Source of the DNA: an uncultured Cetobacterium sp.
Lineage (GTDB): Bacteria; Fusobacteriota; Fusobacteriia; Fusobacteriales; Fusobacteriaceae
DNA: 51,044 nt
Direction: 5' to 3'
NCBI RefSeq assembly: GCF_947039425.1
Contig: NZ_CAMQYW010000003.1
Coordinates: 1-51,044, forward strand
The notes beneath the pieces are model-generated. The model was given only the letters and a program-made list of their open reading frames with translations, was not told the DNA's origin and did no database searches. Every line of letters starts with the position of its first letter. Position 1 is the first letter of the stretch. This document shows positions 4,769 to 42,946 of this stretch, in pieces. The position numbers were made by a program, and so were the translations under genes.

Positions 4769-5497
4769 TTAATATAAATTTTTAGCAATTTCAGAAAGTA
4801 TTATTCCTCCTGCTACAGAAACATTTAATGAGTTTATTTTTCCATGCATTGGAATTTTTACTAAAATATCACAATTTTCTTTAACTTTTTTTCTTATTCC
4901 TTCCCCTTCACTACCTAATACTAATGCAGTTTTATTTGGATACTTCTCTTCATGATAGTATTTTTTCCCTGAACCTTCAGCTCCATAAACCCAGAAATCT
5001 AATTTCTTTAATTGAGCTAAAGCATCTGATATATTTGTTACTCTTATAATGTCAACATGTTCTATTGCTCCTGTTGATGTTTTGATTACCGTTTCATTTA
5101 TTTTAACTGCATTTCTTTCTGGAATAATTATTCCTTTTACTCCAAATATTTCTGCACTTCTTATTATTGCTCCAAAGTTTCTCGGGTCTTGTACTCCATC
5201 TAAAACCAATACAATTGATTTCTCATCTCTTGCTATTTTTTCTAAAAATTCTCCCATTGTTATATAGTAATCATAATTACTTAAATATGCTACGACACCT
5301 TGGGAATTTTCCTCTTTTTTACCAACAGAAAATATTTTTACATTTCTTGCTGAGGCTAAGGCTTTTAATTTCCCTAATTTCTCTTCTCTCATACCTTTAA
5401 ATATCTCTATTTTTTCAATATTGTTAGATTTATTTTGTAATAACTCAATAACAGGATTAATTCCTATAACTTTTTCTAAATTTTCTACGTTTTCCAT
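4769..5497 (-). CDS. rlmB: TrmH/SpoU-family 23S rRNA 2'-O-methyltransferase (RlmB-like)
   Basis: 242 residues from the preferred start. The N-terminal segment VIGINPVIELL is the L30e-like substrate-binding domain; the C-terminal SPOUT domain has motif 1 LDGVQDPRNFGAIIRSAE, motif 2 LVLGSEGEGI and motif 3 IPMHGKINSLNVSVAGGI, which form the trefoil-knot SAM site. Family members 2'-O-methylate a guanosine of 23S rRNA; the exact target base is inferred. ATG 5497 is preferred over 5518 because AAAGGAGAAA directly precedes it. It follows murA by ten bases, so they are probably co-transcribed. Confidence 0.9.
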   Translation of the reverse strand: MENVENLEKVIGINPVIELLQNKSNNIEKIEIFKGMREEKLGKLKALASARNVKIFSVGKKEENSQGVVAYLSNYDYYITMGEFLEKIARDEKSIVLVLDGVQDPRNFGAIIRSAEIFGVKGIIIPERNAVKINETVIKTSTGAIEHVDIIRVTNISDALAQLKKLDFWVYGAEGSGKKYYHEEKYPNKTALVLGSEGEGIRKKVKENCDILVKIPMHGKINSLNVSVAGGIILSEIAKNLY

Positions 5498-5507
5498 TTT
5501 TTCTCCT

Positions 5508-6779
5508 TTATATTTCAACTTTTATTCTTTCTATATTTGCTCCAAGAGCTTGTAATTTTATTTCTAAATTTTCATATCCTCTATCAACATGATAAATTCT
5601 ATTTACTATAGTTTCTCCCTCTGCTAATAATCCCGCTAAAACTAGCGAAGCTCCGGCTCTTAAGTCACTTGCCATTACTTCAGCTGATGAGAAGTTTTTT
5701 ATTCCAGTTACTCTTGCCATATTAGCATCTGTACTTATATTTGCTCCCATTCTATTTAATTCGGGAACATGCATAAATCTATTTTCAAAAATAGTTTCTT
5801 TTATCTCACTTGTTCCATCTACTAAACACATTAATGTCATCATAGGAGATTGTAGATCTGTTGGAAATCCTGGATGAGGCATTGTTGTAGCTTTAGCAGG
5901 TTTCAATTGAGAAAGTTTTGTCTTTGTTCTTAAAACATCTCCTTCGATCTCAAATTCTGCTCCCATTTCTTCAAGTTTTGATATGAAACTTTCAATATGA
6001 TCTCTTACAACTCCTTTTACACTAATCTCTCCATCAAACATTAAAGAGGCTACTATAAATGTTCCTGCTACAATTCTATCTGGCATAATTGAATACTCAC
6101 AAGGATATAATTTTTTTACACCCTCTATTTCTAATCTTCCACTTCCTATACCTTTTATTTTAGCTCCCATTTTTACTAAGAAATTACAAAGATCATCAAT
6201 TTCTGGCTCTCTAGCTGCATTTTCAATTATTGTAATTCCTGTTGCTTTTACAGCTGCCATAATTACATTTTCTGTGGCTCCCACACTTGGAAAATCAAAT
6301 ACAACTTTGTTTCCAATAAGTTCAGCTGTTTCTCCTTCAACGTATCCATGATCTATATTTATCTTTACTCCCAAAGCTTCAAATCCTTTTAAATGTAAAT
6401 CAACTGGTCTAGAGCCAATTGCACATCCTCCTGGTAAAGAAACTCTCGCTTTTTTTTCATGAGCTAGCATTGGACCCATTACTAAAAATGAAGCTCTCAT
6501 TTTTTTTACTAAATCATATGAAGCTTCAAGTGATTTTAATCCTGTATTTACTATTTTATATGAATGATTACTTAATTTTTCTATTTCTAAACCTAGACTT
6601 TCTAATAATTTAGTTAATGTTACAATATCTCTTAAATTAGGAACATTTTTCAGTATATATGTTCCCTTTTCAATTAATGTTGCTACAAATATTGGTAAGG
6701 CTGCATTTTTTGCCCCTTCTACTGATAATTCTCCATTTATTTTTTTCCCACCTATTATTTTAAATGCTTCTATGCTCAC
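5508..6779 (-). CDS. murA: UDP-N-acetylglucosamine 1-carboxyvinyltransferase
   Basis: First committed step of peptidoglycan synthesis: transfer of enolpyruvate from PEP to UDP-GlcNAc in the cytoplasm. 423 residues. Seen: [10 protein letters not shown] with Lys24-Asn25, [15 protein letters not shown] with the catalytic Cys119 (the residue attacked by fosfomycin), [12 protein letters not shown] with the catalytic Asp, and the C-terminal [11 protein letters not shown]. The GTG at 6779, seven bases after AAGGAG, is the likely start; an upstream ATG at 6800 would lie within the preceding gene and has no SD. It starts immediately downstream of a YueI-like gene and upstream of rlmB. Confidence 0.96.
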
Positions 6780-6780
6780 C

Positions 6781-7344
6781 TTATCTCTCCTTTTCATCAT
6801 ATCTGTCTATTATGCACTCTCTTCCTAAAAACTTATCAAAAATATTCATTTTTTCAAACTTATCTAAATATTCTGGTAATTTTTCTTCTAACTCTTTATA
6901 ATGCTTAGAACATATTTTTTCTCCAATTGCATGGGCAAAATTTTCACTTAATCCTGCATCTGTAAAAACTTTAGTAGAGCTTTCTAAGATAATATCTTCA
7001 GATTCATTATCTAAACTTTCACTTGTCACAACTACTAATCCTACACTACCTCTATATGTCAAATCATCTACTAACATATATCTAAGCCCTTGCTTTTCTG
7101 CTTCATCTATATAAGGTTTTATCAAATTTAATTTTATATCTCTTTTTATTTTTAATAAAATTGCATTTTTATTCTTCATAGCTTCTTTTATTTCAAATCT
7201 TATTAAATTTTTTTCTATATCCATTCTATCTAATGCTATAATTACATTTTCTTTAAATTCACCTAAATACTCAAGCTTTTCGCTTTGCATTTTAAAAAAT
7301 CGCATTTTAGCTTTTTCTTTTTCCATTATGATATTATCTACCAA
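6781..7344 (-). CDS. YueI-like protein (DUF1694)
   Basis: 187 residues from a TTG at 7344, which GAAGGTGAT precedes; the upstream TTG at 7359 lies too close to this SD. The region [16 protein letters not shown] resembles the start of the YueI/DUF1694 family, small proteins with an L7Ae-like fold and no established function. No membrane segments. It heads the murA-rlmB operon, with murA starting essentially at its stop codon. The family assignment is from memory of the motif, with moderate certainty. Confidence 0.75.
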
Positions 7345-7450
7345 AATAATCACCTTCAATAAATTTTAGTTTTTCTCAATAATTATAACACATAAATTCA
7401 AAAAAATGATATAATTATAAAATATAACATTAAGCAAATAGGAGGTTTAA

Positions 7451-8266
7451 ATGAGATTCAAGTATTTTTTTGTTTTTTTTATAATTTTCTCATTTTCTCT
7501 TTTTGGAAGAGATAATTTCATCTCTATTTCTGGATTTGTCGTTGATAAAGAGTATCGATTAGGAAATGCTAAAATTTCTTTTTTTAATAGTGAAAATAAA
7601 GTTTATTCTACAAAAACAAATATAAATGGAAACTTTGCCATTACTTTACCTAAAAATAAATATAGAGTTACTGTTAAAAAAACCGGTTATTCATCTCTTG
7701 AGAATACTGATCTTTTTGTTGATTATATTTTTAACAATCCTGAACCTCTAATTTTAAATATGGTCGATAATAAAATTTTAGTATCTGGAAGAATTCTAAA
7801 TCAAAATGGAAATTCTATTAAAAATGCCAATATTAAAGTGAAAATTGGAGAAAATTTAGAAAATCTAAAGAGTGATAATAATGGATTTTTTTCTTTCCAA
7901 GGAAAAGAAGGATTAATTTCAATATTTGCCACTAAAAAAGGTTATTATGGAAATGGAACTGCTCTTTTAATTGAAAAAGAAAAATATATCAATGATATTT
8001 CTATTAAACTTGAAGAAAAAACTTATTTTTTATCTGGAACTCTTTCAAATGAAGATTCTTTTTTAAAAAATACAGAAATAGAGATTATTAATGGTTTAAC
8101 TAATAAAAAAATTTCTAAAGTAAGAACTAATGAATATGGTATTTTTGAGTTTAGAGATATCCGGTATTTTAAAAATGTTTATTTTAAAGTTCCAATTTAT
8201 AAATTTAGAAGCGAAGCTTTTACTTTAAATAAAGATTTTAGACAGTATAATATATTTACAAAATAA
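7451..8266 (+). CDS. Secreted protein with carboxypeptidase-regulatory-like beta-sandwich domains
   Basis: 271 residues. A signal peptide covers about residues 1-19 (FFVFFIIFSFSLFGRD) with no lipobox, so export to the periplasm or cell surface is likely. Three beta-sandwich units follow, each with the pattern [GxV]-[xxGN]-[A.I]-[TNxxGNF]-[Y..V.K.GY]: ISGFVVDKEYRLGNAKISF, VSGRILNQNGNSIKNANI and LSGTLSNEDSFLKNTEIEI. These match CarboxypepD_reg/Cna-B-like domains, which usually serve as adhesion or structural modules. A good SD (AGGAGGT) precedes the ATG. It is an isolated rightward gene in the leftward half; a related domain appears inside the secretin at 12425-13975. Confidence 0.75.
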   Translation: MRFKYFFVFFIIFSFSLFGRDNFISISGFVVDKEYRLGNAKISFFNSENKVYSTKTNINGNFAITLPKNKYRVTVKKTGYSSLENTDLFVDYIFNNPEPLILNMVDNKILVSGRILNQNGNSIKNANIKVKIGENLENLKSDNNGFFSFQGKEGLISIFATKKGYYGNGTALLIEKEKYINDISIKLEEKTYFLSGTLSNEDSFLKNTEIEIINGLTNKKISKVRTNEYGIFEFRDIRYFKNVYFKVPIYKFRSEAFTLNKDFRQYNIFTK

Positions 8267-8267
8267 A

Positions 8268-8303
8268 AAATGACAAAAGTTTAAATAACTTTTGCCATTT
8301 TTT
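8268..8303. terminator. Bidirectional terminator between 7451-8266 and pgi
   Basis: A stem of ATGACAAAAGTT with AACTTTTGCCAT (one mismatch), flanked by A- and T-rich tracts, lies between convergent genes. Confidence 0.75.
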
Positions 8304-8308
8304 TATCT

Positions 8309-9658
8309 CTATTTTTTTAATCTTTTATTTAATTTTTCAGCTTCCTCTTCATATCCTGCTTTTCCCAATAATGCAAACATATTTTTCTTATAAGCTTCCA
8401 CTCCTGGCTGATCAAAAGGATTTACCCCTAAAATATATCCACTTATACCACACGCTTTTTCAAAGAAATAAAACATATATCCTAAATGATATGGTGTAGC
8501 TTCTGGTAAATTAATTAATAAATTAGGTACTCCTCCATCTACATGGGCTAGTATTGTTCCTTCAGATGCTCTTTTATTAACAAAATCCATTCCTTTACCT
8601 GCTAAATAGTTTAATCCATCTAAGTCTAACTCATCTTTCTCTATTAAAATATCATATTCTGGATTTTCAATAGTTATTAAAGTTTCAATTAAACTTCTTT
8701 TTCCATCTTGAATATATTGCCCCATTGAATGTAAATCTGTTGAAAAATCTGCTGCTGCTGGAAATAATCCTTTTCCATCTTTTCCTTCTGATTCTCCAAA
8801 TAATTGCTTCCACCATTCTCCAATATAATGAAGTCTTGGTTCATAATTTATAAGCATTTCAATATCTTTCCCTTTTCTATTTAAAATATTTCTTATTGTG
8901 GCATATTTTAAACAATCATTTTCATTATACGGAGCTTTATAATCCTCTTGAGCTGCTCTTGCACCTTCCATTAATTCATCTATATTAATTCCTGCTGAAG
9001 ATATTGGTAGTAATCCCACTGCTGTTAAAACAGAAAATCTTCCTCCTACATTATCAGGTACTACAAATGTTTCATATCCTTCATCTGTTGCTAATTTTTT
9101 TAAAGCACCTTTCTTAGAATCTGTTGTCGCATATATTCTTTTTCTTGCTTCATCGACACCATATTTTTCTTCTAAATGTTTTTTAAAAATTCTAAAAGCT
9201 ATTGCAGGTTCTGTTGTTGTTCCTGATTTAGAAATTATGTTTACAGAATAGTCTCTATCCCCTATTATTTCTAATAATTCCTTTATATATTTTCCAGATA
9301 TATTTTGTCCCGCAAAGTATATTTCTGGTCCTTTTCTATTTTCTTTCTTTTGGTTATTATAGAAAGTATGAGATAAGAATTCTATAGCTGATCTTGCACC
9401 TAAATATGACCCTCCAATTCCAATAACAACCAATACTTCTGAATCATTTTTTATTTTTTCTGAAGCTTTTTTTATTCTGTTAAATTCATTTTTATCATAA
9501 TTTGTGGGTAAATTTATCCAACCTAAAAAATCTTTTCCAGCTCCTTTTTCATTCATTAACATATCTTTTGCTAATAAACACTGTGATTCCATTAAAGCAA
9601 GTTCATTTTCATTAAAAAATTCTAACGCATTTGAATAATCAAATGATAATTTTTTCAT
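8309..9658 (-). CDS. pgi: Glucose-6-phosphate isomerase
   Basis: Interconverts glucose 6-phosphate and fructose 6-phosphate. 449 residues, the short bacterial form. Seen: [15 protein letters not shown], phosphate-binding [13 protein letters not shown], the family signature [18 protein letters not shown], and the second signature [18 protein letters not shown] containing the C-terminal catalytic Lys region. GGAGGT precedes the ATG. It stands alone between a terminator and the SLH gene, whose stop is about 20 bases upstream, so co-transcription with that gene is possible. Confidence 0.97.
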
Positions 9659-9679
9659 AATCTATACCTCCAACTTAAT

Positions 9680-10141
9680 TTAAATACCAGTTTTTTCTTC
9701 CAAAGCTTTTACTCTCTTCTCAAGTTCAATAACAGAAGCATTAGTTTCATCTGTTTTTTTCTTTAAAAATTCTATATCCATTCTTATGTTTTCTATCTTA
9801 CCATTAAAGGTTTCTGAGTCAAATCCTATTTTAGTTAATTCTCTAGAAAATTCATAAACTAAACTTTCTAAAATTACTAAATCTCCTCTATTCGCTTTTT
9901 TTTCATTTAAATTTTGAAAAGCTCTATCTAATCCTTCAGCAAATGTGTATCTTGACACAGGTACCTCACCTTTAAATAGATAGCTATTCTCTGAAATTAT
10001 CCCCTCTTGAACTAAATTATCTATGGCTTTATATGCCCAATGATTTTTAGGAACATCTTCAAAAATCAAACCTTTTTTAGGCGGATTGTGTGCCAAAATC
10101 ATTGTTATTAATGTAAAATATAATACAATAATTTTTTTCAT
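9680..10141 (-). CDS. Exported SLH-domain protein with C-terminal coiled coil
   Basis: 153 residues: signal peptide (about 1-17, ending ILAHN), one SLH-like domain (FEDVPKNHWAYKAIDNLVQ, then GIISEN, then PVSRYTFAEGLDRAFQN) and a C-terminal heptad-rich coiled coil (about residues 105-150, IENIRMDIEFLKKK and VIELEKRVKALEEK). In Veillonella OmpM and cyanobacterial porins an SLH domain plus coiled coil forms the periplasmic tether of an outer-membrane beta-barrel; here the barrel is missing and the protein ends after the coiled coil, so it could be a free periplasmic spacer or partner of another outer-membrane protein. The domain call is by sight; the role is inference. Confidence 0.75.
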   Translation of the reverse strand: MKKIIVLYFTLITMILAHNPPKKGLIFEDVPKNHWAYKAIDNLVQEGIISENSYLFKGEVPVSRYTFAEGLDRAFQNLNEKKANRGDLVILESLVYEFSRELTKIGFDSETFNGKIENIRMDIEFLKKKTDETNASVIELEKRVKALEEKTGI

Positions 10142-10202
10142 TTTTATCCCTCTTTTTACAGTTCATTTTATATTTTATTTCGTTTATTATATCATTAAAA
10201 AC

Positions 10203-10228
10203 AAAAAAAAAACAGCTCTAAAGCTGTT
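10203..10228 (-). terminator. Terminator of the tRNA cluster
   Basis: On the minus strand, AACAGCT-TTAG-AGCTGTT is followed by a run of eight or more T, immediately downstream of tRNA-Cys. Confidence 0.9.
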
Positions 10229-32948: not shown

Positions 32949-32974
32949 AAAAGTAGGAGTAATCCTACTTTTTT
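32947..32974. terminator. Bidirectional terminator after alr and the DUF134 gene
   Basis: AAAAAAGTAGGA/TCCTACTTTTTT perfect stem with GTAA loop, between convergent genes; it contains the stop codon of the leftward gene. Confidence 0.92.
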
Positions 32975-33405
32975 AAATGGCATAATTTTGTGCATTTTTT
33001 TTGTATTTTGATGCAAATAATATTTTCAGATGAACAATTAGGACATTGATTTAATTGAGAATTAAATGAAGGAATGTATTCGTATGAACAATCTTCACAA
33101 TGAAATTTACAGTGGGGAGTTTTAAAATCACCACCGCCAATAGAAATTCCATGTCCATTGATAAGAGCATCTGCAATTTTTTTTCTAGCTAAACTTAGAA
33201 TTTTTTGAAATGTTTGTCGTGATACATCCATTTTTTCAGCAGCTTCTTCTTGAGATAGCTCTTGAAAATCTTTTAATCTAATGGCTTCAAACTCTTCTAT
33301 TTTTAAATTATTAAAAGAAGTAGAACATTTTTTTTGCCCTTCAGGAATAAAAGTGGTATTAGTTGGAATTAACTCTACATTTCTAATTTTAACTGGTCTA
33401 GACAA
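32965..33405 (-). CDS. DUF134-family DNA-binding protein with zinc-ribbon tail
   Basis: 146 residues. The N-terminal RPVKIRNVELIP and the helix-turn-helix IEEFEAIRLKDFQELSQEEAAEKMDVSRQTFQKIL (cited in part: EEAAEKMDVSRQTFQ) match DUF134, a family often next to NifX-like genes. The C-terminal half is Cys-rich: CKFHCEDCSYEY and CPNCSSENIICIKIQKKC, suggesting metal binding. The start is a TTG at 33405. It is three bases downstream of the NifX-like gene. A regulatory role, perhaps metal- or Fe-S-responsive control of its own operon, is inference. Confidence 0.82.
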   Translation of the reverse strand: MSRPVKIRNVELIPTNTTFIPEGQKKCSTSFNNLKIEEFEAIRLKDFQELSQEEAAEKMDVSRQTFQKILSLARKKIADALINGHGISIGGGDFKTPHCKFHCEDCSYEYIPSFNSQLNQCPNCSSENIICIKIQKKCTKLCHLKK

Positions 33406-33407
33406 AA

Positions 33408-33785
33408 TTATTTACCACAATTACAATTACAAGAGTGATTATCATCATGTTTATGATGTTCGTGGTTTCCATGTCCACCACAACATTTTTGTCTTCCAGT
33501 TACTAAAATTTCTCTAAAGAAACCATCAGCAATATCATCACAAAGACCTTCTAAACCTGTAAAAGCTTTTATATCCTTATTTTTTAAATTATCCATAGCT
33601 CCTTGTCCAATACCACCACAAGCTACAAAATCTATATTTAATTCTTTTAAAAGTGCAGGAATCTCACCATGACCAGTGCTTTCATAATATTCTTTATTAC
33701 CTTCACTATCATAAACAAAAAAACCTTTAGCTTGTCCAAAATGTTGACTTACCTTATTATTGTCTGCTACAACTGCTATTTTCAT
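33408..33785 (-). CDS. NifX/NifB-type dinitrogenase iron-molybdenum cofactor-binding domain protein
   Basis: 125 residues from ATG 33785 (GAGGTG upstream). The domain KIAVVADNNKVSQHFGQA, KELNIDFVACGGIGQGA and LEGLCDDIADGF matches the FeMo-co-binding fold (PF02579), a small protein that carries Fe-S or Fe-S-Mo clusters. The tail (residues about 100-125) is rich in His and Cys: CCGGHGNHEHHKH and CNCNCGK, a probable metal-binding appendage. No nif structural genes are near, so nitrogen fixation is not implied. Operon with the DUF134 gene, under the palindrome-covered promoter. Confidence 0.88.
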   Translation of the reverse strand: MKIAVVADNNKVSQHFGQAKGFFVYDSEGNKEYYESTGHGEIPALLKELNIDFVACGGIGQGAMDNLKNKDIKAFTGLEGLCDDIADGFFREILVTGRQKCCGGHGNHEHHKHDDNHSCNCNCGK

Positions 33786-33797
33786 GATACACCTCAC

Positions 33798-33941: not shown

Positions 33942-35699
33942 ATGAAAGTTAATTTACAAGATATAAAGGAAGAGTTAAAAAAATATGCAAATACTATTTC
34001 TAAACTTTTTTCTATGGATGTAGGTATCTGTGATAAAAATCTTGTTAGAATAACAGGAAGTGGACCACAAAAAATAGGGGAAATAATCAAAGGAAGAGCA
34101 AATAAAAAGGCTTTAGAAACAGGAGAAACAACAGTTATTTTAAATCCAAGAGAGGATTCAATATGTGATGGATGTTCAGAAAAAAAATGTTGTTTAGAAA
34201 CTTTAGAAATTTCTACTCCTATAAGAAATGAAAAAAAAATAATAGGTCTTATTAGTTTAGTTTCTTTTGATGAGAAACAAAAAGAAAAAATAGAAAATGA
34301 TTTAAAAAATTATTTGGATTTTGTAGAACAAATGGCAGAATTAATAAGTATAAGATTTACAGAATATAAAGAGAATTTAGAAAAAGCAGAAAGAGAAAAT
34401 GTTTTATCAACGATATTAAATACCCTTCAAAAGGGAGTAATAAGGTTTGATGAAAATAACATAATAACGACAAGAAATAAATATGCTTTAAAAAAAATAG
34501 ATATTGATAGTGAAATAATTGGAAAAAAAGTAAAAATAGAATCATTAGAAGATTTTTTAATGAAGGAAGAGATATTTAAATTAAAAATTGATTATAAAGA
34601 AGTAGAAGTTGTCGGTAAAATTTTACCATTTGAGTCTTTTGGAAGAAATGAAAAACTTTTTATTTTTGATGATATGAATAAGGTGAATAGTAATATTAGA
34701 GAGTTAGTTGAAACATCAAATAGTGTTTCAACTAAAAATATAATAGGAGAATCTCATTTTACAAGAGAATTAAAAGAAAGAATTAAAAGAGTATCTCTAT
34801 CTAAATCAACAGTACTAATAACAGGAGAAAGTGGAACAGGAAAAGAGTTAGTAGCAAGAGCCCTACATTTTCATAGTGATAGAAGAAATGCCCCTTTTAT
34901 TGTTATAAATTGTGCGGCAATACCCGATTCTTTATTGGAAAGTGAATTGTTTGGATATGTAAAAGGTGCTTTTACTGGAGCTGATAAAAATGGAAGGATG
35001 GGAAAATTTGAATTATCAAATGGAGGAGTAATTTTTTTAGATGAAATAGGAGATATGCCTTTATACTTACAAGCAAAACTATTGAGAGTTATTCAAGAAA
35101 GAAAAGTTACGAGAATTGGTTCAAATAGAGTAATAGATTTAGATATAAGAATAATATCTGCAACAAATGTAGACTTAGAAAAAAGAATAGAGGAAAAAAA
35201 ATTTAGAAGTGATTTATATTATAGATTAAAAGTGATTCCTTTTGAATTGATACCTTTAAGACATAGGAAAGAGGATATATTACCAATAGCATATAAGTTA
35301 ATAAAAAAATATAATAAAATAACAGATAAATATATTCAAAATATAGATGAAAAAGTAGAAAATATTTTACTAGATTATAATTGGCCCGGAAATATAAGAG
35401 AGTTAGAAAATACAATTGAATTTATGTTTAGTATTTCTAATAATGGGGAAACTTTAGATGTTTCAACAGTTCCTGAAAAATTATTAAATATAGATGAAAA
35501 AGTAAAAGTTAATGAAAAAACTTTTGATTTTGAGAAAAATTATAAATTAGATGATTTTGAAGAGATTGAAAAAAATTATATAAAAAAAGCGTTAAAAATT
35601 TATGGAAGTGATACAGATGGGAAAAAAGAAATTTCTAAAAAAATGAGTATAGGATTAACAACATTGTATAGAAAAATACAAAAATATGAAATAGTTTAA
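33942..35699 (+). CDS. Sigma-54-dependent transcriptional activator
   Basis: 585 residues. N-terminal sensor (1-150) with a Cys cluster C-x2-C-x4-C-C (Cys75, 78, 83, 84, in CDGCSEKKCC), a second PAS-like region (about 165-250), then the AAA+ domain with Walker A GESGTGKE, the sigma-54 contact loop GAFTGA, Walker B VIFLDEIGDM and the arginine-finger region, and a C-terminal Fis-type helix-turn-helix (KKEISKKMSIGLTTLYRKIQ). The cluster could sense thiol, sulfide or redox state (inference). Three palindromic sites begin directly at its stop codon, and a sigma-54 promoter precedes the next gene, so it almost certainly activates the cysteine-catabolic operon downstream. Confidence 0.92.
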   Translation: MKVNLQDIKEELKKYANTISKLFSMDVGICDKNLVRITGSGPQKIGEIIKGRANKKALETGETTVILNPREDSICDGCSEKKCCLETLEISTPIRNEKKIIGLISLVSFDEKQKEKIENDLKNYLDFVEQMAELISIRFTEYKENLEKAERENVLSTILNTLQKGVIRFDENNIITTRNKYALKKIDIDSEIIGKKVKIESLEDFLMKEEIFKLKIDYKEVEVVGKILPFESFGRNEKLFIFDDMNKVNSNIRELVETSNSVSTKNIIGESHFTRELKERIKRVSLSKSTVLITGESGTGKELVARALHFHSDRRNAPFIVINCAAIPDSLLESELFGYVKGAFTGADKNGRMGKFELSNGGVIFLDEIGDMPLYLQAKLLRVIQERKVTRIGSNRVIDLDIRIISATNVDLEKRIEEKKFRSDLYYRLKVIPFELIPLRHRKEDILPIAYKLIKKYNKITDKYIQNIDEKVENILLDYNWPGNIRELENTIEFMFSISNNGETLDVSTVPEKLLNIDEKVKVNEKTFDFEKNYKLDDFEEIEKNYIKKALKIYGSDTDGKKEISKKMSIGLTTLYRKIQKYEIV

Positions 35700-35764
35700 T
35701 TTTCAAAATGAAAAATAAGAATTAAAAATAATTTTCAAAATGAAAATAATTTTCAAAATGAAAA
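35700..35764 (+). repeat. Three palindromic activator sites TTTTCAAAATGAAAA
   Basis: Identical 15-base sites at 35700-35714, 35732-35746 and 35750-35764; each is a dyad TTTTCA-N3-TGAAAA. Centre spacings are 32 and 18 bases. They lie about 95-160 bases upstream of the sigma-54 promoter, the usual distance for enhancer sites. Confidence 0.85.
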
Positions 35765-35857
35765 ATCAAGAATTGGAATTTATTTACAAATACTTAAAAA
35801 AAATAGATTAAATCTATTTTTTTTTAAATATACATTAAATTTTATCATTTTTATAAT

Positions 35858-35875
35858 TTGGAATAAAAATTGCTT
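35858..35875 (+). promoter_or_regulatory. Sigma-54 promoter (-24/-12)
   Basis: TTGG at -24 (GG at 35860-35861) and TTGCTT at -12 (GC at 35872-35873), separated by exactly ten bases between GG and GC, the diagnostic spacing. It lies about 45 bases before the start of the next gene. Confidence 0.8.
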
Positions 35876-35918
35876 ATATTTATATATAAAAAAAGATATA
35901 ATAAATTGGAGGTTTCAA

Positions 35919-37196
35919 ATGATTAATAAAATTTTAAGTATTTTAAATGAAGAGATAGTACCAGCGGAAGGGTGTACAGAACCAATAGCTTTAGCATATA
36001 TAGGAAGTAAAATAACATCATTATTAGGAAACGTTCCAGAGAAAATAGAAATTTTACTTTCTGGAAATTTAATAAAAAATGTTAAAAGTGTTAAAATTCC
36101 TAATTCAAATGGAATGGTAGGAATAGAAGCTGCAGTAGCTTTAGGAACAATTTTAGGTGATTCTTCTAAAGAGTTAATGGTAATATCAACAATTGATAAT
36201 TCAAGATTATCAGAAGTTGAAAACTATTTAAAAGAAAATAGAGTCAAAACAAGTAAAATAGATGGTGATGTAAAATTACATATGAGAGCAACAGGTTACT
36301 TAGGAAATGAAGAAGTAACAGTTGAAATAAAAGATTATCATACAAATATTGTTTCAATTTTAAAAAATGGAGTAGAGTTAAAGGGATGTTCGTGTGATGA
36401 AGTTTCAACACATGAAACAATGACTGATAAAGAATTTTTAACAGTTGAATTAATTTATAATCTAGCTAAAACAATAGATTTATCTTCAATTGAACCATTA
36501 TTTAAAAAAGTTATAGAGTATAACTCTGCTATAGCTAAAGAAGGATTAACTAATACTTATGGAATTGCAATGGGTAAGAGTTTAGCCGAAGGAATGGAAG
36601 AAGGAGTTTATGGTAAGGACTTGAAAAATAAAATGGTAAGTTTTGCAAGTGCTGGAAGTGACGCTAGAATGAATGGATGTGGAATGCCTGTAATGACAAC
36701 TAGTGGAAGTGGAAACCAAGGAATGTCAGCATCTTTACCAGTTATAAAATATTGTGAAGAAAAAGGTTTATCTTATGAAGAGTTAATTAGAGGATTATTT
36801 TTCTCTCATATGACTACAATTCATATAAAATCAAATGTAGGAAGATTATCAGCATATTGTGGAGTTGTTTGTGCTGGTGGAGGAGTAGCAGGAGCATTAT
36901 CTTTCTTAGATGGTTTATCTCTTGAAAGAGTAAGTGCAGCAATAGAAACAACATTGGCAACATTATCAGGAATGCTTTGTGATGGTGCAAAAAGTTCATG
37001 TGCCACAAAAATTGCTTCTTCAATAGGAATGGCTTTTGATTCTTATTATATGTCAAAGAAAAATAGAAATTTTGAATATGGAGAAGGACTTGTTGGAAAA
37101 GATGTAGAAGCTACATTAGCTAATGTAAAAGTATTAGCACATGAAGGATTAAGAAAAACAGATGAAGTTGTTCTTGAAATAATGCTAAATAATTAA
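35919..37196 (+). CDS. L-cysteine desulfidase-like protein (CyuA/UPF0597 YhaM family)
   Basis: 425 residues, full length. EEIVPAEGCTEPIALAY with the first conserved Cys, HETMTDKEFL, SAGSDARMNGCGMPVMT, GSGNQGMSASLPV, CGVVCAGGGVAGA and MLCDGAKSSCATKI supply the Cys ligands of the Fe-S cluster of this serine dehydratase alpha-like family. Members release sulfide, ammonia and pyruvate from L-cysteine, oxygen-labile, in the cytoplasm. GGAGG before the ATG. It lies 28 bases before the reductase gene and shares the sigma-54 promoter, so both form a cysteine catabolism operon. Function is from family knowledge. Confidence 0.88.
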   Translation: MINKILSILNEEIVPAEGCTEPIALAYIGSKITSLLGNVPEKIEILLSGNLIKNVKSVKIPNSNGMVGIEAAVALGTILGDSSKELMVISTIDNSRLSEVENYLKENRVKTSKIDGDVKLHMRATGYLGNEEVTVEIKDYHTNIVSILKNGVELKGCSCDEVSTHETMTDKEFLTVELIYNLAKTIDLSSIEPLFKKVIEYNSAIAKEGLTNTYGIAMGKSLAEGMEEGVYGKDLKNKMVSFASAGSDARMNGCGMPVMTTSGSGNQGMSASLPVIKYCEEKGLSYEELIRGLFFSHMTTIHIKSNVGRLSAYCGVVCAGGGVAGALSFLDGLSLERVSAAIETTLATLSGMLCDGAKSSCATKIASSIGMAFDSYYMSKKNRNFEYGEGLVGKDVEATLANVKVLAHEGLRKTDEVVLEIMLNN

Positions 37197-40887: not shown

Positions 40888-41158
40888 ATTTGTACGCACA
40901 GGTGATAGTATAAAGTATAAAATTATGGTTCTTTTGATTAAAAGGGAATTAAGTATAAGCTTAAACGGTCCCGCCACTGTAATGATGACGAAAATAGAAA
41001 AACCACTGAAAGTAATATTTTGGGAAGGGCTATTAGTAGGATGAATCTAAGTCAGGATACCTGCCATAATTAGTATATCTGCGCGGACAGAGAAGAGTAT
41101 TCAACATTTAATAAACTCTTCTCTCAAATTTAACTTAATTTATTTGGGAGGGTTTTAC
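40888..41158 (+). promoter_or_regulatory. Cobalamin riboswitch and expression platform
   Basis: The conserved core elements are present in order: AAAGGGAA (40940s), CCCGCCACTG (40970-40979), GGGAAGG, and the complete B12 box AGTCAGGATACCTGCC (41050-41065). A hairpin AGAGAAGAGT/ACTCTTCTCT (41089-41098 with 41115-41124) without a T run follows. The CTCTTCTCTC arm could also pair with the SD GGGAGGG at 41146-41152, so control is probably translational. It governs the CbiK genes and probably the BtuFCD genes behind them. Confidence 0.92.
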
Positions 41159-42085
41159 ATGAAGAAATTATTTGTTTCATTATTTTGTTTAACAACAGTT
41201 TTATCTTTTGCACATGGAGCTGAATCATATGTTGATTCTGAATTTTATAACGGTGGGAAAAGTGCTGTAATTATGGCACATTTTGGAACTACTCATGATG
41301 ACACAAGAGCTAAGACTATAGATGTAATTAATCAAAAAGCGGCGAAAGCTTTTAAAGGGAATGCTGATGTTTTTGAAGTTTATACATCAAGAATAATAAA
41401 TAAAAAGCTACATGATAAAGAAAATATTAATAAAATGAATACAACAGAGATGTTAAAAGCTTTAAAAAAACAAGGATATGAGAATATAATAATTCAATCA
41501 ACTAATGTTATTGATGGAGTTGAAATGGATGCAATAAAAAAAGAAGCACAAGAATTTTCAAAAGACTTTAAAGAATTAAGGGTTGGAGAAGTTTTATTAA
41601 ATAATCCTCATGATTATGAAGATACAATTAAAATAATCAAGAAAAATATAGGTAAATTGAAAAAAAATGAAGGAATAGTTTTGGTAGGACATGGAAGTTA
41701 TGATTCAGGAAATTCAGCATATGCTATGTTTGATTATATGGCTAAAGATATGAATGAGCCAATGTATGTGGGAACAGTAGAAGGGTATCCAACATTTGAC
41801 ACAGTTAATAGACAGTTAAAAAAAGATAAAATTAAAGAAGTGGTTCTAATGCCAATGATGTTTGTAGCTGGAGATCATGCTAAGAATGATATAGCTGGAG
41901 ATTGGAAAGATATGTTAGAAAAAGCAGGATATAAGGTAAATGTGAAGTTATTACCTTTGGGAGAGATGCCAGAAATTCAAAATAAATTCATAAACGATGC
42001 AAAGTTTTTGGAAAAACATAAAGAAATAGATATTCTTGCTAAAAAAAGAGGATATACAAAGGGAGAAGAGGGACACTCTCATTAA
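41159..42085 (+). CDS. cbiK: Exported CbiK-type sirohydrochlorin cobaltochelatase
   Basis: 308 residues from ATG 41159 (SD GGGAGGG; TTG 41144 is within the SD). A signal peptide (1-20, SLFCLTTVLSFAHG) without lipobox precedes the chelatase, so this copy acts in the periplasm. The CbiK core has MAHFGTTHDD, VGHGSYD with catalytic His178, EGYPTFD with Glu208 and AGDHAKND with His240: the metal-binding triad is intact. The C terminus ends EEGHSH, possibly metal-binding. CbiK inserts Co into sirohydrochlorin in the anaerobic B12 pathway; a periplasmic homologue is known from Desulfovibrio. The reaction of this exported copy is unknown. Confidence 0.9.
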   Translation: MKKLFVSLFCLTTVLSFAHGAESYVDSEFYNGGKSAVIMAHFGTTHDDTRAKTIDVINQKAAKAFKGNADVFEVYTSRIINKKLHDKENINKMNTTEMLKALKKQGYENIIIQSTNVIDGVEMDAIKKEAQEFSKDFKELRVGEVLLNNPHDYEDTIKIIKKNIGKLKKNEGIVLVGHGSYDSGNSAYAMFDYMAKDMNEPMYVGTVEGYPTFDTVNRQLKKDKIKEVVLMPMMFVAGDHAKNDIAGDWKDMLEKAGYKVNVKLLPLGEMPEIQNKFINDAKFLEKHKEIDILAKKRGYTKGEEGHSH

Positions 42086-42103
42086 TAAAGTTGAGGAGTA
42101 ACA

Positions 42104-42946
42104 ATGAATTTTAATAAATTAAAAGAAAAAAAAGCAATATTAATTGCTCATTTTGGAACAACACATGAAGATACAAAATTAAAAACAATAGATGAAATAA
42201 ACAAAAAAATAAAAGAAAAATATGAAGAAATTGATTTGTTTCAAGTTTATACTTCAAGAATAATAAATAGGATTTTATTAAAAAGAGGAATAGAAAACTT
42301 AAATACATCACAAATGTTAAAAAAACTAAAAGAAGATGGATATAAAAATATTTTGATTCAGCCAACTTATATAATAAATGGAACAGAGATGGAAGCATTA
42401 AAAAGAGAGGTTGAAATACACCTGAGTAGTTTTAATGAAATTAGAGTAGGAAATCCATTATTAAGTACTCCAGAGAATTATAAAATGGTAGTAGAGGCTT
42501 TATCACAAGAGATAGGAGATTTATCTGATGATGAAGGGGTAGTATTTGTAGGTCATGGAACAGAACATTCAGCAACATCAGCTTATCCAATGCTAGATTA
42601 TGTAGCAAAAGCTTTGGGTAAAAAGTTTTATATAGGAACAGTAGAAGGATATCCAACTATTGAAAATGTTATAGATTTATTGAAAAAAGATAGAATAAAT
42701 AAAGTGAAATTAATGCCTTTAATGTTTGTAGCTGGAGATCATGCAAAAAATGATATTGCAGAAGATTGGAAAGAGGAGTTAGAAGCAAATGGATTTGAAA
42801 TTAATTTAGATTTAAGAGGTTTAGGGGAGATCTCAAAAATTCAAGATATATATTTGAAGAATATAAAATCTATTTTTGAATTTGCACCAGAAGATATTCT
42901 TAAAAAGAAAAAAGATTATGAAAAAGGGAAAGAGAGTAATCATTAA
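42104..42946 (+). CDS. cbiK: Cytoplasmic CbiK-type cobaltochelatase
   Basis: 280 residues, a paralogue of the preceding gene without signal peptide. The same motifs are present: IAHFGTTHED, VGHGTEHS with His151, EGYPTIE with Glu181, AGDHAKND with His213. GAGGAG before the ATG, 18 bases after the first cbiK. The two proteins are clearly similar along their length, indicating a tandem duplication with divergence in location. No other cob/cbi biosynthesis genes are in the window. Confidence 0.9.
   Translation: MNFNKLKEKKAILIAHFGTTHEDTKLKTIDEINKKIKEKYEEIDLFQVYTSRIINRILLKRGIENLNTSQMLKKLKEDGYKNILIQPTYIINGTEMEALKREVEIHLSSFNEIRVGNPLLSTPENYKMVVEALSQEIGDLSDDEGVVFVGHGTEHSATSAYPMLDYVAKALGKKFYIGTVEGYPTIENVIDLLKKDRINKVKLMPLMFVAGDHAKNDIAEDWKEELEANGFEINLDLRGLGEISKIQDIYLKNIKSIFEFAPEDILKKKKDYEKGKESNH

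What the first reader, a model, noticed from the sequence alone, without database searches (positions are those of the whole stretch)
35700..35918. Complete sigma-54 control circuit for cysteine catabolism
Three identical 15-base dyads begin at the stop codon of the activator gene, followed by a GG-N10-GC promoter in front of a CyuA-like cysteine desulfidase and a CoA-disulfide/persulfide reductase-like gene. The activator keeps GAFTGA and has a Cys-x2-Cys-x4-Cys-Cys cluster in its sensor. Together they suggest cysteine, sulfide or redox controlled production of H2S.
Basis: partly seen in the sequence, partly recalled or inferred. Interest (0 to 1): 0.72.

Follow-up and report, generated by a model that had tools for sequence, protein, structure and literature searches.

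The report
Private sigma-54 switch for cysteine breakdown
In a Cetobacterium (a genus known from fish guts), a gene activator and three identical DNA sites very probably switch on an enzyme that breaks cysteine down to hydrogen sulfide; similar wiring is known in Clostridioides difficile, but here it seems to have arisen separately and to be the only visible job of this bacterium's sigma-54.

Summary
Three identical TTTTCAAAATGAAAA dyads (35700, 35732, 35750) follow the activator's stop codon, and a -24/-12 element (35858-35873) precedes cyuA (cysteine desulfidase) and a CoA-disulfide-reductase-like gene.

Comparison makes the circuit very likely. All 15 cyuA genes of this lineage that I examined keep dyads and promoter, two of them with the activator elsewhere, beside rpoN; 15 other fusobacterial cyuA genes lack the dyads. 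The genome has rpoN.

It works like the tested C. difficile CdsR-SigL-cdsB circuit, but activator and enzyme trees both place it apart from the clostridial one. Most activators around it in the tree sit beside dpaL and use TTATCA-N3-TGATAA; a Thr/Ala change in the recognition helix covaries with that base. It is the only sigma-54-competent activator found in this draft genome; the same holds for 8 of 11 rpoN-bearing Cetobacterium genomes.

Corrections: three cysteines, not four, are conserved, and dpaL-linked activators share them, so they do not mark cysteine sensing. Inducer, transcript start and H2S output are untested.

The parts
33942..35699 (+). Sigma-54 activator gene, 585 aa: GAF-PAS-type sensor, AAA+ domain with GAFTGA, Fis-type HTH
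   Evidence: PF00158 235.5 bits; GAFTGA read; sensor model and DhaR match
34164..34193 (+). Codons 75-84 of the activator: C-x2-C-x4-C-C; C75, C78, C84 invariant, C83 not
   Evidence: 24-sequence alignment; C-x2-C-x(4-6)-C found in 15 of 15 clostridial activators near cyuA
34965..34982 (+). GAFTGA loop of the activator; the only GAFTGA-coding match in the genome
35658..35660 (+). Codon of Thr573 in the recognition helix (IGLTTLYRK); covaries with base 3 of the half-site
   Evidence: read on the sequence
35700..35714 (.). Activator-binding dyad 1, TTTTCAAAATGAAAA
35732..35746 (.). Activator-binding dyad 2, identical
35750..35764 (.). Activator-binding dyad 3, identical
35796..35824 (+). A/U stem-loop with U run, possible terminator of the activator gene
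   Evidence: fold -8.4 kcal/mol, z -4.26, 0 of 200 shuffles as stable; function inferred
35858..35873 (+). Sigma-54 -24/-12 promoter element TTGGAATAAAAATTGC; expected start about 35884-35886
   Evidence: TGG-N9-TGCT in 15 of 15 compared upstreams; start site not mapped
35919..37196 (+). cyuA, L-cysteine desulfidase, 425 aa
   Evidence: PF03313; only PDB matches are M. maripaludis L-cysteine desulfidase; active-site residues
37225..38568 (+). FAD/NAD(P)H oxidoreductase of the CoA-disulfide reductase group, 447 aa, no rhodanese domain; next to cyuA in 11 of 11 Cetobacterium loci
   Evidence: NF007123 712.6 bits (cut-off 458), TIGR03385 525 bits (cut-off 578.8, not reached); Pfam; PDB 3cgb; neighbourhoods

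Best explanation
A self-contained sigma-54 switch for cysteine breakdown. The activator binds the three TTTTCA-N3-TGAAAA dyads about 130-180 bp upstream of the expected cyuA start, loops to RNA polymerase-sigma-54 held closed at TTGGAATAAAAATTGC and, when its GAF-PAS sensor sees a signal (most likely cysteine), uses ATP to open the promoter. CyuA then splits cysteine to pyruvate, ammonia and sulfide, and the flavoprotein reduces disulfides or persulfides that arise. It works like C. difficile CdsR-SigL-cdsB but was assembled separately, in the branch whose other activators mostly sit beside dpaL; in this genome it is the only visible customer of sigma-54. Shown by comparison: sites, promoter, rpoN, active-site residues, co-conservation, separate placement in trees. 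Inferred: DNA binding, looping, inducer, H2S, co-transcription, the role of the flavoprotein.
For: All 15 cyuA upstreams compared (11 Cetobacterium, G023, G034, G017, G029) have at least one exact TTTTCANNNTGAAAA and a TGG-N9-TGCT element. In G017 and G029 the activator lies beside rpoN on another contig, yet cyuA keeps the dyads. None of 15 other fusobacterial cyuA upstreams has the dyad. rpoN with all three Pfam domains is in the genome. The genus member without rpoN also lacks activator and CyuA. CyuA keeps eight active-site residues. In Clostridia 12 of 12 tandem activator-cyuA loci have a sigma-54 element, against 2 of 45 loose matches where no activator is near. In C. difficile cdsB needs SigL, CdsR, cysteine and an upstream region with inverted repeats (PMC5767170, section 22).
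Against: No experiment in this organism. The -24 box TTGGAA departs from TTGGCA. The trees reject simple common descent with CdsR-CdsB, so the inducer is inferred by analogy only. The sensor cysteines are shared with dpaL-linked activators. G001 is 82% complete and the three genes are linked in the genus, so one gap could explain their joint absence. The draft genome is 94% complete, so a further activator may be missing. One study found no SigL effect on C. difficile cdsB without added cysteine (PMC7438776, passages).
Confidence: 0.84

Rival explanations
1. It is the clostridial CdsR-cdsB circuit itself, inherited or transferred as a unit into Fusobacteriota.
For: Same gene order, full-length homologous activators with the same sensor, dyads sharing the core TCA-N3-TGA.
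Against: CyuA tree: the fusobacterial sigma-54-linked clade (100/100) lies in fusobacterial CyuA, away from 12 of 14 clostridial sigma-54-linked ones; one clade costs 974 log units, p-AU 1.8e-93. Activator tree: one clade rejected, p-AU 0.0013. The groups were framed after the first tree was seen, long branches exist, and named clostridial activators such as CdsR1/2 and DioR of C. difficile were not in the set.
Confidence: 0.12
2. The activator senses redox state, sulfide or a metal through C75, C78 and C84 (a metal or Fe-S site), with cysteine breakdown as a response.
For: Three invariant cysteines in a loop of the first sensor domain.
Against: The same cysteines are in activators beside dpaL, where no sulfur chemistry is evident. 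In C. difficile Na2S did not induce cdsB (PMC5767170).
Confidence: 0.25
3. The sensor binds small 3-substituted alanines in general; dpaL-linked relatives answer to diaminopropionate and this one to cysteine, serine or a similar compound.
For: Both target enzymes, CyuA and diaminopropionate ammonia-lyase, act on 3-substituted alanines (established chemistry); the sensors are homologous.
Against: No ligand data; the sensor model is apo and its best match, DhaR, senses protein partners (recalled).
Confidence: 0.4
4. The repeats and the promoter word are chance in A+T-rich DNA.
For: The gap is 12% G+C, and single dyads occur at control level across these genomes.
Against: Kept in 15 of 15 related upstreams whose spacers differ, also where the activator is elsewhere; absent from 15 other fusobacterial cyuA upstreams.
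Confidence: 0.01

Closest known systems
CdsR-SigL-cdsB of Clostridioides difficile (PMC5767170; regulon predictions for Clostridiales in PMC6615313)
   Same: A sigma-54 activator gene directly upstream of a cysteine desulfidase gene, inverted-repeat sites 100-250 bp upstream, -24/-12 promoter, GAFTGA, homologous sensor with the three cysteines.
   Different: Other branch of activators and other CyuA subfamily; half-site TTTTCA instead of TCTCA or TATCA; second gene for a CoA-disulfide-reductase-like flavoprotein; sigma-54 has one visible activator here but many in C. difficile (PMC7438776, passages).
DioR-type activators of dpaL, ygeY and ssnA genes (named in PMC6615313, Table 1 passage)
   Same: Closest branch in the activator tree apart from G004:C2; same domain plan and cysteines; up to three TCA-N3-TGA dyads before a sigma-54 element.
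   Different: Target is dpaL, site TTATCA-N3-TGATAA, recognition helix IGIATLYRK instead of IGLTTLYRK. That the fusobacterial ones are DioR orthologues was judged by neighbours only.
CyuR-cyuPA of Escherichia coli (PMC11408624, search listing only)
   Same: Cysteine-dependent control of a CyuA-type enzyme making H2S.
   Different: CyuR is an Lrp-type regulator (recalled), not a sigma-54 activator.
Single-activator sigma-54 systems such as Borrelia, Chlamydia and Helicobacter (recalled)
   Same: One activator serves all of sigma-54.
   Different: Those serve virulence, development or flagella; the visible target here is one amino-acid catabolic operon.

Membership tests
Sigma-54 enhancer-binding proteins | AAA+ sigma-54 interaction domain above family cut-off | tested here: met
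   PF00158 235.5 bits, cut-off 20.2
Sigma-54 enhancer-binding proteins | GAFTGA loop | tested here: met
Sigma-54 enhancer-binding proteins | sigma-54 present in the genome | tested here: met
   TIGR02395 301.5 bits, cut-off 277.35; AID, CBD and DBD domains
Sigma-54 enhancer-binding proteins | activation of the promoter in vivo | not testable with these tools
   needs mutants or reporter
CdsR-cdsB circuit of Clostridia | activator gene upstream of a desulfidase gene with dyads and -24/-12 promoter | tested here: met
CdsR-cdsB circuit of Clostridia | activator groups with clostridial cyuA-linked activators | tested here: not met
   p-AU 0.0013; C. difficile CdsR represented only by the close relative L243
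CdsR-cdsB circuit of Clostridia | enzyme groups with CdsB | tested here: not met
CdsR-cdsB circuit of Clostridia | induction by cysteine | not testable with these tools
   experiment needed
L-cysteine desulfidase CyuA | catalytic Cys23, Glu25 and cluster ligands Cys287, Cys329, Cys336 (M. maripaludis numbering) | tested here: met
   C19, E21, C314, C354, C361 (roles from PMC12647591, passages)
L-cysteine desulfidase CyuA | desulfidase activity | not testable with these tools
   assay needed
CoA-disulfide reductase | family model cut-off and active-site Cys | tested here: inconclusive
   over the cut-off of NF007123, under that of TIGR03385; Cys42 in WGACGLPYY aligns with 3cgb; NADH oxidases are close relatives

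The most novel reading that the evidence does not exclude
Sigma-54 control of cysteine desulfidase evolved more than once. In Fusobacteriota it arose by re-aiming an activator of the dpaL-linked (DioR-like) branch at cyuA, with an Ala-to-Thr difference in the recognition helix matched by one base per half-site (TTATCA versus TTTTCA), which keeps the paralogous circuits apart in the three Cetobacterium genomes that carry both. In most Cetobacterium, this one included, sigma-54 has become a private sigma factor for this single operon.
Probability: 0.5. Interest if true: 0.66.

Novelty: new variant of a known kind. Interest (0 to 1): 0.5.

Why it matters
It is a natural case of the same metabolic enzyme being wired to the same unusual sigma factor separately in two phyla, with a candidate one-residue, one-base specificity switch that a simple E. 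coli reporter could test. If sigma-54 really serves one operon in Cetobacterium, loss of rpoN and loss of the activator should change the same few genes, a rare chance to study a sigma factor with a single job. It also predicts when a fish-gut commensal releases sulfide from cysteine.

Tried and rejected
Sensor cysteines as a mark of cysteine sensing: rejected, since activators beside dpaL keep them. More regulon members in this genome: the exact site is nowhere else; two single TTTTCANNNTGAAAA sites on C17 and C246 are at control level (5 places in all against 4 for the control) and were not followed. The best consensus -24/-12 word seen elsewhere (C7:17900) lies inside an ORF. Simple inheritance from clostridial CdsR: disfavoured by both trees. 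C. difficile itself could not be fetched by name; L243, from an unnamed 4.26-Mb contig, is a close relative: 591-aa activator as for CdsR, promoter core identical to the published one with different flanking letters, repeats near the published distances if the start is put 52 bp before the ATG, whereas the paper says 63 bp. The genome-contig scan returned only 11 loci. The reversed control of TTGG-N8-TTGC (10 against 118) is unfair because CG is rare in such DNA (my reading), so I did not use it. Distances between the sensor cysteines could not be measured: no coordinates were at hand. Print searches: Fusobacterium/sigma-54/cysteine, Fusobacteri/RpoN/enhancer binding protein, Cetobacterium/rpoN, Cetobacterium/sigma54, Cetobacterium/cysteine/hydrogen sulfide, cysteine desulfidase/sigma-54 list no title or abstract start describing this circuit in Fusobacteriota; this is no proof that none exists. 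PMC3162934 (passages) notes that F. nucleatum lacks sigma-54.

Full report
WHERE. The window is contig C3 of a 2.05-Mb draft genome in 298 contigs, 94% complete. Its genus is Cetobacterium: four genus members (G011, G006, G010, G003) have contigs of the same length and coordinates as contigs titled Cetobacterium sp. (L152-L155). By the same match G023 is Fusobacterium mortiferum and G014 Propionigenium maris.

THE OBSERVATION. A 13-bp A/U stem with a U run between the dyads and the promoter (35796-35824, z -4.26) may end the activator's transcript. Shuffles of the gap give a triple 15-mer in 67 of 20,000 and the promoter word in 11 of 20,000. The strong evidence is comparative.

SITES FOLLOW THE TARGET. 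I compared 15 cyuA upstream regions: 11 Cetobacterium including the window, and G023, G034, G017, G029. All 15 have a TGG-N9-TGCT element and at least one exact TTTTCANNNTGAAAA dyad: 10 have three, G002 and G010 two, G003, G034 and G029 one (several of these five also have copies with 1-2 mismatches). In G017 and G029 the activator is not beside cyuA; it lies next to rpoN on another contig, and cyuA still carries the dyads. The activators concerned are 54-77% identical to the window's. As a control, 15 of the 18 other full-length fusobacterial CyuA matches (those for which loci were made; 30-57% identical) have no such dyad; one, L316, has a loose TGG-N9-TGC at -249, L320 has a bare TCA-N3-TGA, and L313 had only about 120 bp upstream. 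In G002 a single further exact site lies on C21, not followed.

SIGMA-54 AND ITS ACTIVATORS. rpoN is above the family cut-off in 23 of 61 genomes, among them the window's (C167) and 10 of 11 genus relatives. The exception, G001 (82% complete), also lacks the activator, any GAFTGA and CyuA; as these genes are linked in other members, one gap could explain this. The window's genome has five PF00158 hits. I read all five: this activator; two related proteins with GAFLGA and GAFEGA; two that read as ClpB-like and MoxR-like ATPases. A degenerate search for GAFTGA finds one match in G000 and in nine other Cetobacterium genomes, five in G004, none in G001; GAYTGA has none in the genus. I fetched the other activator-like genes that one search lists for the genus: they carry GAFLGA, GAFEGA or no such loop, except that G003, G004 and G006 have a dpaL-linked paralogue with GSFTGA (which I count as probably competent) and G004 two more genes with GAFTGA. 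So 8 of 11 rpoN-bearing Cetobacterium genomes, this one included, show a single competent activator; G011 is only 67% complete. PMC3162934 (passages) treats Thr/Ser at position 4 of GAFTGA as the functional form and notes Glu there in F. nucleatum, which lacks sigma-54.

PROTEINS. CyuA: PF03313; its only PDB matches are M. maripaludis L-cysteine desulfidase. Cys23, Glu25, Arg223, Asn239, Cys287, Cys329, Cys336 and Lys339 of that enzyme align with identical residues C19, E21, R250, N266, C314, C354, C361 and K364; its nonconserved Cys289 is V316 (roles from PMC12647591, passages). The second gene passes one CoA-disulfide reductase model and not another and has no rhodanese domain. It follows cyuA in 11 of 11 Cetobacterium loci and in none of the other four. 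In G023 a sodium:dicarboxylate-type symporter gene (PF00375) follows cyuA instead; in G034 an AbgT-type transporter gene, below the curated cut-off of its model, comes first and a symporter-like gene later. The sensor was modelled from 12 sequences (pLDDT 87.7, pTM 0.67); the best PDB match is the sensor of E. coli DhaR (E 5.8e-10, TM about 0.5), which fits a GAF-PAS tandem.

THE CYSTEINES. C75, C78 and C84 are invariant in 24 of 24 activators; C83 varies even within the genus. The motif is in 15 of 15 clostridial activators near cyuA and in activators beside dpaL. It marks the sensor family, not cysteine sensing.

THE KNOWN CIRCUIT. In C. difficile cdsB needs SigL and the adjacent activator CdsR (591 aa, GAFTGA), answers to cysteine and not Na2S, and needs a region with inverted repeats 179-211 bp before the start (PMC5767170, section 22 and passages). 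PMC6615313 (passages) predicts such regulons in Clostridiales. PMC7438776 (passages) found no SigL effect on cdsB without added cysteine. I searched CyuA in 391 clostridial genomes: 108 had a match, many of them weak. I fetched 60 loci among the higher-scoring ones, 58 from that search and 2. Fifteen have an activator nearby: 12 in tandem, 2 convergent, 1 at 1.7 kb. All 12 tandem loci have a sigma-54 element and 6 a strict TCA-N3-TGA dyad; 2 of the other 3 have the element; of 45 without an activator 2 have a loose element and none a dyad.

SEPARATE ORIGIN. In a tree of 84 CyuA the fusobacterial sigma-54-linked ones (9 rows; six near-copies left out) form one clade (100/100) inside fusobacterial CyuA, and 12 of 14 clostridial sigma-54-linked ones lie in another part. 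Holding all 23 together costs 974 log units, p-AU 1.8e-93. In a tree of 42 activators the fusobacterial cyuA group lies among fusobacterial and clostridial activators, most of them beside dpaL, and apart from the clostridial cyuA-linked ones; one clade is rejected, p-AU 0.0013. Caveats: the groups were framed after the first tree; long branches exist; L156 and L157 were counted as cyuA-linked by kinship to G017 and G029, not by seeing their cyuA; the fork joining the Cetobacterium and other fusobacterial cyuA activators has 90/79 only; the nearest outsider, G004:C2, is not dpaL-linked but stands before an ATC-hydrolase gene and a distant CyuA-like gene (L319), which I had labelled as unlinked in the CyuA tree; named clostridial activators were not available.

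A POSSIBLE SPECIFICITY SWITCH. The dpaL-linked activators have up to three TTATCA-N3-TGATAA dyads, one base per half-site away from the cyuA sites; 8 of the 10 regions printed there, not all of them dpaL, have a strict TGG-N9-TGC element. dpaL passed TIGR03528 in 5 of 5 proteins scanned (G003, G023:C66, BL-3, P. maris, G031); for G004, G006 and G018 it was read from the ORF text or sequence. I tabulated 36 activators with target upstreams, allowing spacers of 3 or 4. Those with Thr at the position of Thr573 (15 fusobacterial, plus clostridial L204 and L207) have T at the third base in the dyads found (17 of 17). Those with Ala and a dyad (7 dpaL-linked, 10 clostridial) have A (14) or C (3), never T. 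L240 (Ser) and L244 (Ala) gave no dyad. Thr occurs in two lineages of this set, so independent contrasts are few. The position is a base-contacting one in Fis-type HTHs (recalled). G003, G004 and G006 carry both paralogues.

VERDICT. Shown by comparison: sites, promoter, rpoN, linkage, active-site conservation, separate placement. Inferred: binding, looping, cysteine as inducer, H2S, the flavoprotein's role. The circuit is very probably real, a counterpart of CdsR-cdsB in function, and a new variant by its separate origin, its site specificity and its apparent monopoly on sigma-54.

Noticed in passing
L260, L267, L270 (G005, G008, G009) and L280, L287 (G012, G020): Paralogues with a related sensor and Fis-type HTH but no GAFTGA and a broken Walker A motif, also in G012 and G020, where one search found no full rpoN: perhaps sigma-54-independent regulators.
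   Followed up: partly
L114 (G004:C2:115000-130000), 5391-10227: A shortened rpoN-like gene, a GAFTGA activator, an ATC-hydrolase-family gene and a distant CyuA-like gene in a row: a possible second sigma-54 cluster for thiol compounds.
   Followed up: partly
G017:C20, G029:C21, G031:C8, G018:C5; Cetobacterium G002-G011: rpoN lies directly beside an activator of this family in several fusobacterial genera, and on the same contig about 14-18 kb from the cyuA activator in 10 of 10 Cetobacterium relatives that have both.
   Followed up: partly
L113 (G004:C6:1-14000): A contig that carries the locus twice head to head, one copy of the activator with stop codons; perhaps an assembly artefact.
   Followed up: no
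window 32965-33797, minus strand: A DUF134 gene and a dinitrogenase-cofactor-domain (PF02579) gene stand divergently upstream of the activator; seen in 7 of the 10 Cetobacterium relatives fetched, not in G007, G010, G011.
   Followed up: no
L119 and L122 (G023, G034): Transporter genes follow cyuA in these two genomes in place of the flavoprotein gene: possible cysteine or cystine uptake.
   Followed up: partly
G000 C214 and C171 (L002, L003): Two activator-like proteins with GAFLGA and GAFEGA; kin with the same loops were found in 10 and 9 of the 10 rpoN-bearing Cetobacterium relatives.
   Followed up: partly
window 41144-42946, plus strand: Two adjacent genes that read as CbiK-like cobaltochelatases, near the circuit in related loci too (name from my reading, no family search).
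   Followed up: no
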